Below, piece after piece: positions 57,455 to 63,749 of a DNA stretch of 64,000 nt. The notes beneath the pieces are model-generated. The model searched no databases, was not told the DNA's origin, and saw only the letters and a program-made list of their open reading frames with translations. Location: assembly GCA_021927905.1 (NCBI GenBank), contig BLLK01000027.1:682001-746000 (forward strand), given 5' to 3'. The stretch is from Chaetoceros tenuissimus. Lineage: Eukaryota > Bacillariophyta > Thalassiosirophyceae > Chaetocerotales > Chaetocerotaceae. The translations under genes and the position numbers were made by a program. Within the stretch, counting starts at the first letter, position 1; each line of letters starts with the position of its first letter.

Positions 57455-59428
57455 CTATTGTTCGGTATCTTTTCTATATTGTTTCATATCAGCGATACTT
57501 GTGAGTACAAAACCATGTTTTTTGCAAAAGCGTTTGATTTCTGGCAATCTCATCATTTCTGTTGGATTCTCTTCAGAATTTATTTCACATAATACTCCAC
57601 TTGGATGACATCCAGCTAGTCGCGATAGATCAACAGCCGCCTCAGTATGCCCATCTCTTGTCAGAACTCCATTTTCTTTTGCTCTTAATGGAAAAACATG
57701 TCCTGGTCTTACAAAATCTGTTGGCCCAGAGGATGGATCTGCAAGTAATTGCATTGTCTTTGCTCTCTCCTTTGGACTAATACCGGTGGTAATACCTGTA
57801 TTCAAGTGTTAGACTAGAAATCAAGGACAAATAATTGACAATATGTTGGAATGAACGCACCATGCTTTCTTGCAGCATCTACAGTTACGCTAAAAGCGGT
57901 TCCTTTCGGATCTTCACTATTGACTACCATCGCAGGAAGTTTCAATTCGTCCATTCTAGCTCCCTCCATTCCAATACAGATGACTCCACTTGAATATCTA
58001 TTGATTATGGCCATCGTTTCTGGAGTACACTTATCTGCCGCCATGATGAAATCACCCTCATTTTCACGATCCATATCATCAACAACAACAACGATTTCTC
58101 CGCGAGCAACAGCCTCAATTGCTTTTTCGACAGATTCCCTTCCAAAACAATAACCATCTTCATTTGCGACAACTCCTTCCTGATCATCATCAATGAGTGC
58201 AGATGCAATAGCAGCTGCAGCCATTTCTTCGCCTTCATTAATAAATTCCTCGGCTACTGAATGCGGGTGTGCAGCTCCTTGCTTTTGCAAAGCATTGACA
58301 GCATCATCAACTATTCCTGCCGCACCTCTACTATCTAAGTCGATCGAAAGCATTTCGCCAAAATTTGTATGATTCATTCTATCTTGCTTTGTCTGCAAAT
58401 ACTTGCGATTAAATTCAGTTGGCTTCTTTACAACCATTGGAATGGTATCCTTTACATCAATTCCCAGACTAGTCAATCTCTCAATCTTTCTTGGGTTATT
58501 CGTAATGAGACGGATGCTATCAATACCCATGTCTTCGAGAATGGAAGGAACAACTCCATATTGGCGGCAGTCCTCTGGAAATCCAAGATGAGTGTTTGCA
58601 TCAACAGTATCCATACCTACATCCTGAAGCGCATAAGCGGCTACTTTATTTGCCAAACCAATTCCTCTTCCCTCCTGTTGAAGATAAATGATTGCGCCAC
58701 CGTGCTTTTGGATATATTCTAAAGACATCTTCAACTGTTCTTTACAGTCACATCTACAAGTAGTGATGAAAAGAAAATGAGAGAGGATAATCGAAATTTC
58801 TCAATCTTGCAACTCAATTTCTAGATACTCACCTTTGACTGCGAAAAACCTCACTTGTAAAACACTGATCATGAATTCGAACAGGTACATCCTTCTTTCC
58901 AAAAGGAGGCTTATGTGTTGAATAGATGACACAAGGTTCAGTACCTACATGCTCATTCTGTAAGAGTTCTCTCATCTTTTCTTCTACACGATATGCACGA
59001 AGACGAAAGTGACCAATGTCTGTTGGTAAGTTTGTTTCGGCAATATGTTTAGTTTTTATTTCCTGGTCCGAATTTCCTAGCTTATCAGTGAATTTCTCAA
59101 TTGAAATACTTGCTTTAGTTCTTCCATTTACTCCCTTTGATGACTTTATTTCAATCTCATCCTCAGTCCCTTCTTTAGCAGAAAAGAGGGAACTAGAACC
59201 TCCTCGAGATGAAAGTGCATTATTACTTTGGATGTGTGTGTTTCTGTTGCTCACGCTAGACCTTGTCACACCAAAAGTGGTTGCTAGAGCTTCTGAATAT
59301 GATCGGCATGAATCATTTGATGTAGATCTAGAAAATCCTCCTCCTGATAATACGAGTAGTACAGATGCTAGGAACACAGAACGAGATGAACAAGTCGTAT
59401 TGCAGGGCCTCTTTTGGGTTTTCTTCAT
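57455..59428 (-). CDS. RIBA: Bifunctional GTP cyclohydrolase II / DHBP synthase, domains in reversed order
   Basis: Three exons, 59428-58833, 58753-57861 and 57795-57455, giving 609 residues. N-terminal leader ([12 protein letters not shown]) then a linker. GTP cyclohydrolase [11 protein letters not shown], zinc Cys in [11 protein letters not shown] and [23 protein letters not shown] synthase follows: [37 protein letters not shown] and [11 protein letters not shown]. Both active sites are complete. Most RibBA proteins have the synthase first, so the order here is reversed. The pair supplies the two entry precursors of riboflavin, from GTP and ribulose 5-phosphate. The leader suggests plastid import. 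Confidence 0.93.
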
Positions 59429-59914: not shown

Positions 59915-61468
59915 TTATTCTAGGCTTTTATAATTATGCAGCCAGTTATCAATAAGCGTTCTTGCAATGACTCTTTTTGGAGGGATCAAAAGGTTCAAAT
60001 CTGGATTCTTTTCCAAAATTGCCATGGCAACATCATGTTGCATCACAGGTCCCTCTTGCTCTGAAGCTAACATGACATCCTCACGGTCAAACCATTTGGC
60101 GTCCACCAATTCATTCTCATCAATGTTGAGTGGTTGTTCATCATCTGCTGTGGCGGTGAATGCAATCATGGAACTCTGAGGGAATGGCCAAGGTTGGCTA
60201 CCAATATACTTTACTGAACCTTCATCAATTCTGATTCCTGTTTCTTCAAAAGTTTCTCTTGCAACAGCATCCTCAAATGTTTCTCCAGCCTCTACGAACC
60301 CTGCAAGTACTGTATGGACCTTTGGTGGATGACGCTTTGATCGTGCCAATAGAATGCGCTTGCCGCATCTTGAAGTGATGGATGCAATCATTGACGGGTC
60401 TTGACGTGGCCATGATAGAGTATTACATGATGTACATTTTTGGGTTGTCCCTGCATGAATGATTGATTGAGGTGCCCCACATAATGGACAGAAACAACTT
60501 CTTCTTTGCCAATTTGCATAAGCCATCATGTGCAAAGCCAAACCATTTTCCAAGGATGATAAGAAAGGAGCATTAGTTCTGGTATCTGCGAAGTAATAGT
60601 TTTCTTCTAGAGATATATCACTGTCATCTTCATCTTTGATATCGATACCAAATATTGGAGTCTTTGCCTCATCCGATAGTAAGCCGAGGAATGTAAGCTG
60701 ATTCTTTTCACAATTTCTGAATGCTGATACCTCGTCATAAGATAGTAACCCCAATTCTTCTGATGATCGAAATAGAATCTCATTCTTCTTTACCAAAACA
60801 AACTTTGCCTCTTTTTCTAACTTTGAAAGTTCGGTTGAATTACTACGCAAATGTGTCGCTCTATCAAGCACAACCTTTTCGTTTGGTACAACATGATCAA
60901 TTGAAGTTTCTTTTTGTCCACCTTCTTCCATGACTTCCAGCAACAAGTCTGCCGCTGACTTGGCAAAGTATGACATGTTTCCTTGTCTACAGTTCGTATC
61001 TGTCTCCACTATCTTTTGTTTCAGCACTTTTACTGTATTATCGTCGTCTCTTCCCGCAACTGTTAATACTGCAAAACCATTATGTAGGTCTTTCGGTCCA
61101 AATGTTGGTCCTGCCGCACCTCCTTCAGCTATTGCAAAATCTGTACCAAGAGATTCACAAAATGCAACCGACGTTATTGCTGTCCATTCCAATTTACTTT
61201 GGATGTATTCATCTTTTGTATCTTTCTTTGTTGCTGAAGGAGAAGTAAGAGATGCATGCAACGCATCATCATTCAAAAGAAGAGGCTTCCCCTTCTTCGT
61301 ATTATATGCTATTGATCCTCCATAGTAAATCGATGAGCTTCCAGGTTGCTGCATGATTGAGGAAGATATCTTACCTCCACAACATTGTTCTACAACTGTG
61401 CAAGTTTTCTTGGAAGATTTCAATGCCTTGACCAAGCGTTTGAACGATGCGGATGTCATTGCGGACAT
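59915..61468 (-). CDS. CinA/PncC-like domain fused to NADH pyrophosphatase (Nudix)
   Basis: Single exon, 517 residues. Residues ~10-182 match the CinA C-terminal (PncC, NMN deamidase) domain: V-E-Q-C-C-G-G-K-I-S-S-S, P-G-S-S-S-I-Y-Y-G-G-S-I-A-Y-N and A-I-A-E-G-G-A-A-G-P-T. Residues ~225-517 are NudC/NUDT12-like: zinc-ribbon Cys at 327, 330, 345 and 348, Nudix box 390-412 (G-F-V-E-A-G-E-T-F-E-D ... R-E-T-F-E-E-T-G), and S-Q-P-W-P-F-P-Q-S at 424-432, the diagnostic NADH pyrophosphatase motif. The Nudix half would cut NAD(H) to NMN(H) plus AMP; the other half may turn NMN into NaMN. The usual E-S-C-T-G-G of PncC reads E-Q-C-C-G-G, so deamidase activity needs proof. No leader is obvious, so cytosolic. 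Confidence 0.88.
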   Translation of the reverse strand: MSAMTSASFKRLVKALKSSKKTCTVVEQCCGGKISSSIMQQPGSSSIYYGGSIAYNTKKGKPLLLNDDALHASLTSPSATKKDTKDEYIQSKLEWTAITSVAFCESLGTDFAIAEGGAAGPTFGPKDLHNGFAVLTVAGRDDDNTVKVLKQKIVETDTNCRQGNMSYFAKSAADLLLEVMEEGGQKETSIDHVVPNEKVVLDRATHLRSNSTELSKLEKEAKFVLVKKNEILFRSSEELGLLSYDEVSAFRNCEKNQLTFLGLLSDEAKTPIFGIDIKDEDDSDISLEENYYFADTRTNAPFLSSLENGLALHMMAYANWQRRSCFCPLCGAPQSIIHAGTTQKCTSCNTLSWPRQDPSMIASITSRCGKRILLARSKRHPPKVHTVLAGFVEAGETFEDAVARETFEETGIRIDEGSVKYIGSQPWPFPQSSMIAFTATADDEQPLNIDENELVDAKWFDREDVMLASEQEGPVMQHDVAMAILEKNPDLNLLIPPKRVIARTLIDNWLHNYKSLE

Positions 61469-62022: not shown

Positions 62023-63749
62023 TTATACATCAACAGAAGTGCCTTCAGTCAAAGGTTGCTTTTCTGCATCCTCACTGTCATCAACATGCTCATCATCAAT
62101 CTCAATTTGAGGATCGTCGATGGTAGCGAACATTGCAGTATGAATGTCTTCTCTTGGCTGTTGTGGTCCGATAAATGGCATGTAAGTAGTTGCAAACAAA
62201 GAAACGAGAGATGCAGCCAAAACTCCAGACATTGCATTTTGCTCTCCAGCGAGGAAGCAAAGAATAATTGGTGTTGCAAGTGCAGTTCTGGTGATTCCAA
62301 CATTGATTGCGGCGGCAAAAGAAAGGCATGCAAGAGGAATTGGAATAGAAGGAATGACCCAACAAAGTGCTCTACCAAGCGCAGCTCCGGATGCAAAGAA
62401 TGGGAAAATGAAACCTCCTCTGTAGCCTCCTGCTACAGTGAAAGAGATTGCAATAAGCTTTGCAAATGCCACAATTAGTGCATGAGTACCGTTTTCCATT
62501 TCAAACCCAAAAAGACCAGTAGTTGGCCAGATATGAGTCAAAGTGGATGCTGGAGACATTGTTGAAAGAGTCTGGAACTCATATTCTCCCCAAAACATTG
62601 TCTGTGGAATTACCATACCAAGAATTACCACGACAACAGCACCGTAGAGTGCCCTATTTGGTGCATTTTCATCGCTGAGCAAATTCTTTGACTTGAACCA
62701 TGCCATCACCTTGCCGTGGAACATTGCAAAGAGTGCTGCAATTCCACCACCAACAAGTCCAATCACAGCTCCAGTCAAAACATTACCAGCAGTAGCACCA
62801 TCGAGTTTCACTTTTTGGATTTCCCAGATAGGAGCAATAGGCAATCCAGCAAGAGATCTAAACACAGCTAGAGTAACTTCACCACAGAAAATTGCCTCGA
62901 TCATGTGCTCAAAGTACTCAACTCCAAAGCGACTGTTGACCTCAAGAGCAAACTGGATAATATTTGTTAGAAATAATCATTTTTCCATAGTAAATGATGT
63001 ACAAGACAATCTTATACTCACCATAGATCCTCCCAATGGTGAACCGAAGAAAGCTGCAAGAGCTCCAGCCATTCCCATCAAAGTATGCTTTCTAACAATA
63101 TTCTTGTTGGTTCTCTTGAAAACTGTTCTTGAAACAAATCCTCCAAGTGCAGCACAAATTGCTACCAAAGGTGCTTCAGGTCCAAGGGATCCACCACCAA
63201 GAATTCCGAATTGACTTGCACAAACCATAGGCATTACGTGATCCATTCCAATAAAAGCCTTCTTGTGTACACATTTGATAGTATAAGCAAGATCACCTGG
63301 TTCACCGAGATACTTCACAGTCAAACCAGAACAATATGCCATACTAAAACCAATGATTGGGATCCACATTACATATAACCATTGTGGCCAAACATCAACA
63401 ATATATTTATTTGGGAAATCGTGCCAAATAAATTCCAAAAGAGTCCACAAAATTTTATAGTATACATTTGCTGCAACTCCGCATACAACACCTATAACGA
63501 TTCAAAATGATTTGGATGAGCAATATAAATTAAATAAGTCAGGAAGAATGCATCTCAAAATCTCTCTAGGAACGTACCAATTACTCCAGCTACAATAATA
63601 CTTTGTGGCACTGTTCCTTCTGCAAATGTTTTGAGATCTTCTGCAAAGGATGATCTGGTTTTCACCATTCCATTTGGAGGAGAAGAGATTGGAGGATGTG
63701 CTGCATCCTCTTTCACATCATTTGTTCCGTAGTCAGCTTGAGGAGGCAT
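62023..63749 (-). CDS. CLC-type chloride channel/transporter
   Basis: Three exons, 63749-63578, 63491-63022 and 62952-62023, giving 523 residues; the ATG at 63749 is the first in the frame. CLC landmarks: G-G-G-S-L-G-P-E-A-P-L-V-A (the G-x-E-x-P region, with the gating Glu), A-F-F-G-S-P-L-G-G-S-M joined to F-A-L-E-V, G-G-Y-R-G-G-F-I-F-P (G-x-F-x-P), and the late helix L-S-F-A-A-A-I-N-V-G-I-T-R-T-A. About ten or more membrane helices. The glutamate after the G-x-E-x-P region is kept, which suits either channel or exchanger mode. No CBS domains follow; the C-terminus is a short acidic tail, as in bacterial-type CLCs and some algal ones. It is in the membrane of an unknown compartment. Confidence 0.9.

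What the first reader, a model, noticed from the sequence alone, without database searches (positions are those of the whole stretch)
59915..61468. CinA/PncC-like NMN deamidase domain fused to a NudC-type NADH pyrophosphatase
One uninterrupted exon encodes both a PncC/CinA-C-like domain and a full NADH pyrophosphatase with zinc ribbon, Nudix box and S-Q-P-W-P-F-P. These are consecutive steps in NAD recycling: NAD(H) to NMN(H), then NMN to NaMN. Substrate channelling is inferred. The deamidase motif is altered (E-Q-C-C-G-G instead of E-S-C-T-G-G), so the first half may instead be regulatory. I know of no standard description of this fusion in eukaryotes.
Basis: partly seen in the sequence, partly recalled or inferred. 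Interest (0 to 1): 0.75.

Follow-up and report, generated by a model that had tools for sequence, protein, structure and literature searches.

The report
Diatom NAD-cutter with disabled CinA domain
A diatom gene encodes an intact-looking enzyme that cuts NAD(H), joined to a relative of a bacterial enzyme whose chemical residues are gone while its residues for gripping the same small molecule remain, which suggests a built-in product sensor rather than a second enzyme.

Summary
The fusion is real at the DNA level. One 517-aa frame (59915-61468, minus strand) carries a CinA/PncC fold (residues 10-182), an 18-residue linker and a NudC/NUDT12-type NADH pyrophosphatase (201-517). No Met lies between M180 and M314, so the NudC half has no good start of its own. 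The NudC half keeps the catalytic and NAD-pocket residues that I mapped, with one conservative change. The CinA half has lost the catalytic side chains of NMN deamidase (S31, K63, T105 are Q28, G60, G116) but keeps the phosphate-binding set (G46/S48, Y58, R145 are G43/S45, Y55, R161). In E. coli PncC, published mutants of the Ser and Lys are dead but still bind NMN; mutants of the Tyr and Arg do not bind. Two-step channelling is therefore unlikely. Binding is inferred, not shown. No eukaryote collection could be searched, so conservation of the fusion is untested. The nearest bacterial relatives are probably a CinA subfamily that lacks K63; the tree test is not decisive. New variant of a known kind.

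The parts
59915..61468 (-). whole fused open frame, 517 aa plus stop (MSAMTS...YKSLE)
   Evidence: single frame, no internal stop; stop-to-stop frame 526 aa, so an in-frame stop lies within about 9 codons upstream
60923..61441 (-). CinA/PncC-fold domain, residues 10-182
   Evidence: Pfam CinA 62 bits over 10-179; last helix 161-182; Foldseek ranks 1-21 all CinA
61373..61390 (-). block P-I, E27-Q-C-C-G-G32; catalytic S31 position is Q28, T33 position is C30
   Evidence: alignment of 55 rows
61334..61342 (-). block P-II, G43-S-S45 (G46 and S48 positions kept)
61286..61306 (-). block P-III, Y55-N-T-K-K-G60-K61; Y58 kept as Y55, general base K63 replaced by G60 (in a low-confidence loop of the model, residues 56-81)
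61106..61129 (-). block P-VI, A114-E-G116-G117-A-A-G-P121; T105 replaced by G116, G106 kept as G117
60986..60988 (-). R161, equivalent of the phosphate-binding R145 (TtCinA Arg-377)
   Evidence: Arg-377 counted on the 4uux alignment, role from PMC4246079 section 17
60869..60922 (-). linker, residues 183-200, no methionine; low confidence in the full-length model (184-208)
59918..60868 (-). NudC/NUDT12-type NAD(H) pyrophosphatase, residues 201-517; homology to M. abscessus NudC starts at residue 201
   Evidence: NF001299 210.3 bits; alignments; Foldseek ranks 1-28
60569..60808 (-). rudimentary NUDIX-like N-terminal domain, residues 221-300
   Evidence: Pfam PF09296 E 0.017, below cut-off; strands in the model
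60419..60505 (-). zinc ribbon, residues 322-350, C327 C330 C345 C348
   Evidence: Pfam 22.1 bits, cut-off 24.8; four Cys invariant in 7 rows
60236..60301 (-). Nudix box, residues 390-411, with E405 E408 E409
60173..60199 (-). NADH specificity motif SQPWPFPQS, residues 424-432
   Evidence: motif meaning from PMC5389931 passages

Best explanation
The gene makes a NudC-type pyrophosphatase that splits NAD(H), and possibly NAD caps of RNA, into NMN(H) and AMP. Its N-terminal CinA-fold domain no longer deamidates NMN but keeps the pocket that holds a 5'-mononucleotide phosphate. The domain most likely serves as a non-catalytic NMN(H)-binding module, in cis to the enzyme that makes that ligand, giving product feedback or regulated dimerisation. 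Shown: fusion in the DNA, both folds, intact pyrophosphatase residues, loss of three catalytic side chains, retention of the phosphate-binding set. Inferred: pyrophosphatase activity, loss of deamidase activity, NMN(H) binding, regulation, cytosolic location.
For: Residue table over 55 rows. Canonical CinA rows: S31 36 of 36, K63 36 of 36, T/S105 35 of 36. The diatom has Q, G and G. G46 is kept in 35 of 36 canonical rows; S48, Y58, G106 and R145 in 36 of 36; the diatom keeps all five. E. coli PncC mutants S29A and K61Q are inactive but bind NMN (Kd about 37-125 uM); Y56A and R142A lose binding (PMC8231969, passages and section 5). So the diatom domain lost the two residues dispensable for binding and kept the two needed for it. 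NudC half: NF001299 above cut-off, Nudix box with E405, E408, E409, SQPWPFPQS, four Cys, and NAD-pocket residues I361, F391, Q425, W427, S432, M434 present (residue roles from PMC6856373 section 5; correspondence from the alignment). It is the only CinA-family match in the genome, while a second, unfused NudC-like gene exists. Precedent: plant FAD synthetase fused to an inactivated pyrophosphatase, proposed to bind FAD without catalysis (PMC9678776 passages).
Against: No binding or activity data exist. The loop holding the K63 position is poorly modelled (pLDDT < 50, residues 56-81), so K59 or K61 could lie near the pocket. C29 or C30 could act as a nucleophile. Retention of Y and R is general to the fold (54 of 54 other rows) and may reflect folding, since R145A lowers stability in AtCinA (Tm 54 against 85 C). 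Replacement of T105 could weaken binding (T105A raises Km 6.5-fold and leaves about 6% efficiency). S29A and K61Q were single mutants; loss of all three together was not tested in the passages I read. K61Q itself was less stable. The fusion is known here from one genome only.
Confidence: 0.42

Rival explanations
1. The CinA domain is a non-binding scaffold: a dimerisation or protein-contact module, or a decaying passenger, attached to an ordinary NudC.
For: PncC and NudC are both dimers (PMC8231969; PMC6856373), so the fusion is geometrically plausible. The diatom CinA branch is very long (2.87, 5.54) and an insert of about 13 residues lies near block P-IV, as expected under relaxed constraint.
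Against: The domain keeps G43/S45, Y55, G117 and R161 although its best identity to any row is only 29-33%; the frame is intact with no stop.
Confidence: 0.3
2. The CinA half is catalytic on another substrate, for example NMNH or a damaged nucleotide, as the K63-less bacterial subfamily may be.
For: 47 of 47 rows of the nearest subfamily (46 from bacterial genomes, 1 from a viral contig) lack K63 yet keep Y58, G106 and R145, and 40 of 47 keep S31, which suggests a working site with different chemistry. K63 to G and T33 to C occur together in L098 and L103, as in the diatom, and the wider tree joins the diatom to these two.
Against: The diatom also lost S31 and T105, which that subfamily mostly keeps (S31 40 of 47, T/S105 46 of 47). 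Subfamily membership of the diatom is likely but not secured (AU test).
Confidence: 0.14
3. One reading: an active NMN deamidase with alternative residues (C29/C30 as nucleophile, K59/K61 as base), channelling NMN from the NudC site.
For: The two reactions are consecutive in NAD recycling. The genome shows no NAMPT/NAPRT-family match (0 matches) but NAD synthase matches (3), so a mononucleotide salvage step would be useful.
Against: Loss of S31, K63 and T105 together; S31A and K63A alone abolish AtCinA activity; TIGR00199 PncC_domain 33.8 bits against a cut-off of 68.9. Fungal CinA proteins lacking S31 and K63 were also described as altered (PMC3855486).
Confidence: 0.1
4. The fusion is an artefact: two genes, mis-assembly, or an in-frame intron.
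For: No transcript evidence; genes of this organism can carry short introns (my reading of the second NudC copy).
Against: Continuous open frame over the junction, linker of 18 residues, no Met between M180 and M314, position inside an 884-kb contig.
Confidence: 0.04

Closest known systems
E. coli NudC / human and mouse NUDT12 (NAD(H) pyrophosphatase, NAD-cap remover)
   Same: NUDIX-like, zinc ribbon, Nudix box, SQPWPFPxS; ranks 1-28 in Foldseek; 44-50% identity over the Nudix core with Salmonella-record and Haemophilus enzymes
   Different: CinA-fold domain at the N-terminus where NUDT12 has ankyrin repeats (PMC6856373); EcNudC Y124 is W353; two extra residues before the SQPW motif; no C-terminal peroxisome signal that I recognise (ends YKSLE)
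PncC / CinA C-terminal NMN deamidase (AtCinA 2A9S, TtCinA 4UOC)
   Same: fold and phosphate-binding residues
   Different: S31, K63, T105 all replaced; insert of about 13 residues; fused to NudC instead of COG1058
TtCinA / SoPncC bifunctional COG1058-PncC
   Same: a CinA domain fused to a nucleotide pyrophosphatase in NAD metabolism
   Different: there the pyrophosphatase is COG1058 (ADP-ribose), N-terminal, and the deamidase is active (PMC4246079, PMC3680494 passages); here it is Nudix, C-terminal, and the deamidase site is dismantled
Fungal CinA lineage 2.2.3.4 of Sanchez-Carron 2013
   Same: eukaryotic; S31 and K63 lost, Tyr kept, Cys in place of T33 (SEAACGG there, VEQCCGG here)
Other NADH diphosphatase fusions in the 21-architecture survey, for example Isochorismatase_NUDIX-like_NUDIX
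   Same: an extra domain N-terminal to a NADH diphosphatase, in rare single cases (PMC6856373 section 6)
   Different: none of the 21 listed has CinA; the survey pattern would not have found this protein
Plant FAD synthetase AtFADS1 with inactivated FAD pyrophosphatase domain
   Same: an enzyme of coenzyme metabolism fused to a dead domain that may bind the ligand (PMC9678776 passages)
   Different: other reaction, other fold

Membership tests
NADH pyrophosphatase (NudC/NADD) | NCBIfam NF001299 NAD(+) diphosphatase above curated cut-off | tested here: met
   210.3 bits against 158
NADH pyrophosphatase (NudC/NADD) | Nudix box G-x5-E-x7-R-E-x2-E-E and SQPWPFPxS | tested here: met
   residues 390-409 and 424-432
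NADH pyrophosphatase (NudC/NADD) | four-Cys zinc ribbon | tested here: met
   C327, C330, C345, C348; Pfam score slightly below cut-off
NADH pyrophosphatase (NudC/NADD) | published NADD Prosite pattern (PMC6856373) | tested here: not met
   no match, also after relaxing two points. Read by eye it departs at W353 for Y/F, spacing 15 for 13-14, and S433 for Q/L/I/M/A. It is a search pattern, not a catalytic requirement
NADH pyrophosphatase (NudC/NADD) | NAD(H) hydrolysis | not testable with these tools
   needs enzyme assay
NMN deamidase (PncC) | CinA fold / PF02464 | tested here: met
   62 bits against 23.5; Foldseek 21 of 21 chains at E <= 0.001 are CinA
NMN deamidase (PncC) | catalytic Ser31 | tested here: not met
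   Q28
NMN deamidase (PncC) | catalytic Lys63 | tested here: not met
   G60; neighbours K59 and K61 in a low-confidence loop
NMN deamidase (PncC) | Thr/Ser105 | tested here: not met
   G116
NMN deamidase (PncC) | phosphate-binding G46, S48, Y58, R145 | tested here: met
   G43, S45, Y55, R161
NMN deamidase (PncC) | TIGR00199 PncC_domain cut-off | tested here: not met
   33.8 bits against 68.9
COG1058-PncC bifunctional CinA | PF00994 MoCF/COG1058 domain | tested here: not met
   not among the Pfam matches at E <= 1
K63-less CinA subfamily ('NM' type, my label) | tree grouping against canonical CinA | tested here: inconclusive
   canonical rows split from subfamily plus diatom at 99/98 and 100/100, but the diatom lies outside the subfamily proper (94/84), the AU test does not reject grouping with canonical rows (p 0.461), the bootstrap had not settled, and the branch is very long
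Fungal CinA lineage 2.2.3.4 | P-I SEAACGG, P-III YS[ML]K[TQ]R | tested here: inconclusive
   VEQCCGG and YNTKKG here; similar losses, different letters; consensus read from PMC3855486 only

The most novel reading that the evidence does not exclude
A NAD(H)-cutting, possibly RNA-deNADding, enzyme that carries its own NMN(H) sensor in cis, made from a dismantled NMN deamidase. NMN(H) released by the Nudix domain or by other NAD consumers binds the CinA pocket and sets pyrophosphatase activity, so that the diatom tunes NAD turnover to its NMN pool. This would be a dedicated NMN sensor in a photosynthetic eukaryote.
Probability: 0.28. Interest if true: 0.75.

Novelty: new variant of a known kind. 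Interest (0 to 1): 0.48.

Why it matters
If right, the protein links NAD breakdown to the level of the product in one polypeptide and shows how a lost enzyme becomes a sensor. It gives a direct, cheap test of pseudo-enzyme regulation in NAD metabolism of diatoms; my paper searches listed no study of NAD salvage in diatoms. It also warns that CinA or 'NMN deamidase' labels should not be transferred to eukaryotic proteins, or to the K63-less bacterial subfamily, without checking the catalytic residues.

Tried and rejected
Relatives of the whole protein: viral contigs gave none. Genome contigs gave 12 loci, all 12 matching only inside residues 223-517, the NudC half. Phage and plasmid records: 0 of 13 and 0 of 67 matching records cover 80% of the query in one place. 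So no prokaryotic or mobile source of the fusion was found.

Fusion or neighbourhood of CinA and NudC in bacteria: no NudC match in 47 loci of the K63-less subfamily (E <= 1, flanks about 1.5 kb in most) nor in 39 other CinA loci (E <= 1e-3); positive control 6 of 6 NudC loci. Among 42 matches in 38 of 299 genomes of the phylum of G006 (the Microvirga genome) the longest open frame is 438 aa. In the phylum of G003 (an Ignavibacteria MAG) 124 of 198 genomes matched and listed frames reach 562 aa; only 15 loci were fetched and tested, so longer frames such as that of G484 were not read. In one search, 158 of 289 genomes have a NudC match and some frames exceed 450 aa; those loci were not fetched, so a fusion there is not excluded.

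Conserved neighbours of the K63-less subfamily: none consistent. Of the neighbour frames scanned, Amidohydro_2 occurred in one clade (L029, L030, L036) and ligA upstream in L028 and L044 only, 2 of 47 loci.

Combined alignments of CinA and NudC relatives with the full-length protein were misaligned and not used (A5, A7). The full-length model was built on NudC relatives only, so its CinA half is poor (pLDDT < 50 for residues 1-132) and says nothing on domain packing.

Organism name: Chaetoceros was a guess from genome size, looked up but not tested and not claimed.

Rows left out: L055, L057, L061 (duplicates); L085 (same gene as L028) and L043 (canonical) in the 47-row set; L091, L100 (near copies) and the long canonical rows L058, L060, L062, L081. 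Rows were chosen as best matches (25 loci, 15, 30), so they are not a random sample of the family, and I drew the K63-less group from the alignment before the tree was built.

Full report
What is there. The minus strand at 59915-61468 holds one frame of 517 codons from ATG to TAA without a stop. The stop-to-stop frame is 526 aa, so an in-frame stop lies just upstream of the ATG. Pfam finds CinA at residues 10-179 (62 bits, cut-off 23.5) and NUDIX at 368-468 (71.9 bits, cut-off 21.1); the zinc ribbon and NUDIX-like domain lie in the right places but score below cut-off. NCBIfam assigns NAD(+) diphosphatase at 210.3 bits against 158. The genome (41.0 Mb, 68 contigs) is a diatom's by 11 silicon-transporter matches, up to 705.6 bits.

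Is the fusion real? The CinA domain ends at about 182 (last helix 161-182). Homology to M. abscessus NudC begins at residue 201 (alignment to 8zb3; protein named). Between them lie 18 residues. M180 is the last Met before M314, so the NudC half has no plausible start of its own. Over residues 171-225 the coding frame is open, while each of the other two forward frames has at least one stop. I take the fusion as real at the DNA level; transcripts would prove the product.

The NudC half. An alignment with five relatives from genome contigs (L009-L013) and one from a viral contig (L063) keeps the four Cys, the Nudix-box residues G395, E396, R404, E405, E408, E409, and S424, Q425, W427, P430, M434 in 7 of 7 rows. 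Against the residue roles given for E. coli NudC in PMC6856373 (section 5 read), the window has I361, F391, E405, E408, E409, Q425, W427, S432 and M434 in place of I132, F160, E174, E177, E178, Q192, W194, S199 and M201, and W353 for Y124 (correspondence from the alignment). A502 may match A241, which I did not verify, and E111, called non-conserved in that paper, was not mapped. Foldseek on the full-length model gives NudC/NUDT12 chains in ranks 1-28. The half looks like a working NAD(H) pyrophosphatase. A second NudC-like gene lies at C46:37943-38900 (132.5 and 23.1 bits for its two pieces, below the 158-bit cut-off), with an apparent intron and a presequence-like N-terminus in my reading. 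The window copy shows neither a presequence nor a C-terminal SKL-type signal to my eye; I infer cytosol.

The CinA half: fold. A model from eight aligned sequences has pLDDT 75.1 and pTM 0.77. All 21 PDB chains at E <= 0.001 are CinA proteins; the next match has E 0.021. By sequence alone the domain is barely recognisable in the PDB (best CinA chains E 0.059, below a phage protein at 0.0099).

The CinA half: active site. I aligned it with 54 other CinA domains and counted two groups, 36 canonical and 18 of a K63-less type. The window has Q28 for S31, C30 for T33, G60 for K63 and G116 for T105. It keeps G43, S45, Y55, G117 and R161 for G46, S48, Y58, G106 and R145. R145 corresponds to TtCinA Arg-377, the phosphate ligand (PMC4246079 section 17; position counted on the 4uux alignment). 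In AtCinA, S31A and K63A have no detectable activity, and T105A keeps about 6% of the efficiency (PMC5384747 passages). The TtCinA authors instead propose water attack with Lys-301 as base, helped by Thr-340 (passages), equivalent to K63 and T105; both are missing here too. So under either published mechanism the deamidase is dismantled.

What the retained residues mean. In E. coli PncC, S29A and K61Q are dead but bind NMN (Kd about 37-125 uM), while Y56A and R142A no longer bind (PMC8231969 passages and section 5). The window has lost the first pair and kept the second. This is the main ground for a ligand-binding pseudo-deamidase next to an NMN(H)-producing enzyme. Limits: Y58 and R145 are kept in all 54 other rows and may be needed for folding (R145A melts at 54 against 85 C); the K63 loop is poorly modelled and flanked by K59 and K61; C29/C30 could act as a nucleophile; T105 loss may weaken binding; loss of all three together was not tested in what I read.

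Relatives. In 299 genomes of the phylum of G006, 38 matched; the ten best matches are 30-35% identical with open frames of 161-288 aa. These and further loci form a type with Y58 and R145 in 47 of 47 rows, K63 in 0 of 47, S31 in 40 of 47 (4 Gly, 3 Thr in the rest) and a Met four residues after R145 in 47 of 47. The 30 best were fetched and all have the type's residues (L085 repeats L028). Among window residues that split the groups, nine agree with this type and six with canonical CinA. The tree splits canonical rows from this type plus the diatom at 99/98, with the diatom outside the type proper (94/84). A wider tree does so at 100/100 and joins the diatom to L098 and L103, which share C at T33 and G at K63. 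But the branch is very long, the bootstrap had not settled, and the AU test does not reject the alternative (p 0.461). I call the kinship probable. Two members, L028 and L044, both without S31 and K63, lie downstream of ligA, whose product is also NMN (recalled; also in PMC4246079 passages; genes). 2 of 47 is thin, but the parallel is notable.

Context in the genome. No match to the NAMPT/NAPRT family (PF04095; the same search rings in 6 of 14 control genomes), against NAD synthase (3 matches), isochorismatase family (11) and CTP_transf_like (6). Introns can hide genes, so this is a hint only. Diatoms are reported to appear to make NAD from aspartate (PMC4217691 passages).

Novelty. A survey of 7,479 NADH diphosphatases lists 21 architectures, none with CinA (PMC6856373 section 6). 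That survey used a pattern which this protein fails, so it could not have seen it, and its silence is weak evidence. PMC3855486 mentions CinA 'occasionally fused with other domains' in a figure I could not see, and describes three fungal CinA sequences with S31 and K63 lost. Nine paper searches gave no listing that describes this fusion; I read listings and the named passages and sections, not every paper. No eukaryotic sequence collection was available, so whether other diatoms have it is unknown.

Verdict. Real fusion, intact pyrophosphatase, dismantled deamidase with a retained mononucleotide-phosphate pocket. Channelling is unlikely (0.1). A product-binding regulatory module is the best single account (0.42), with a plain scaffold next (0.3).

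Noticed in passing
L028:2-1965 and L044:1492-3449: CinA-like genes without S31 and K63 lie downstream of ligA (NAD-dependent DNA ligase, an NMN-releasing enzyme): directly in L028, about 0.6 kb away in L044.
   Followed up: partly
L028-L042, L044, L045, L053, L086-L114: A CinA subfamily that lacks the general base K63 in 47 of 47 rows; several of its genomes also hold a second CinA match. Two of three members tested pass the PncC_domain cut-off (L034, L032; not L028), so automatic annotation may call them NMN deamidases.
   Followed up: partly
G000 (whole genome): No match to the NAMPT/NAPRT family PF04095 in this diatom assembly, although NAD synthase and isochorismatase-family matches are present.
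   Followed up: partly
L003:1147-2461: Second, unfused NudC-like gene with a presequence-like N-terminus and an apparent short intron; its NADH motif reads SQPWLFPRS.
   Followed up: partly
window 57814-59428, minus strand: Next gene downstream is RibBA-like (GTP cyclohydrolase II plus DHBP synthase matches in two frames); both genes serve nucleotide coenzymes, probably by chance.
   Followed up: partly
window 62023-62904, minus strand: Next gene upstream matches a CLC-type chloride channel.
   Followed up: no
NCBIfam NF002972: A CinA-fold family is titled '2-oxo-tetronate isomerase', an odd name that may be a labelling error.
   Followed up: no
G000:C17:442278-446357: Three silicon-transporter matches in a row are each given a 1459-aa frame on the minus strand, which looks like a tandem fused transporter; the third match is reported with two stops inside.
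   Followed up: no
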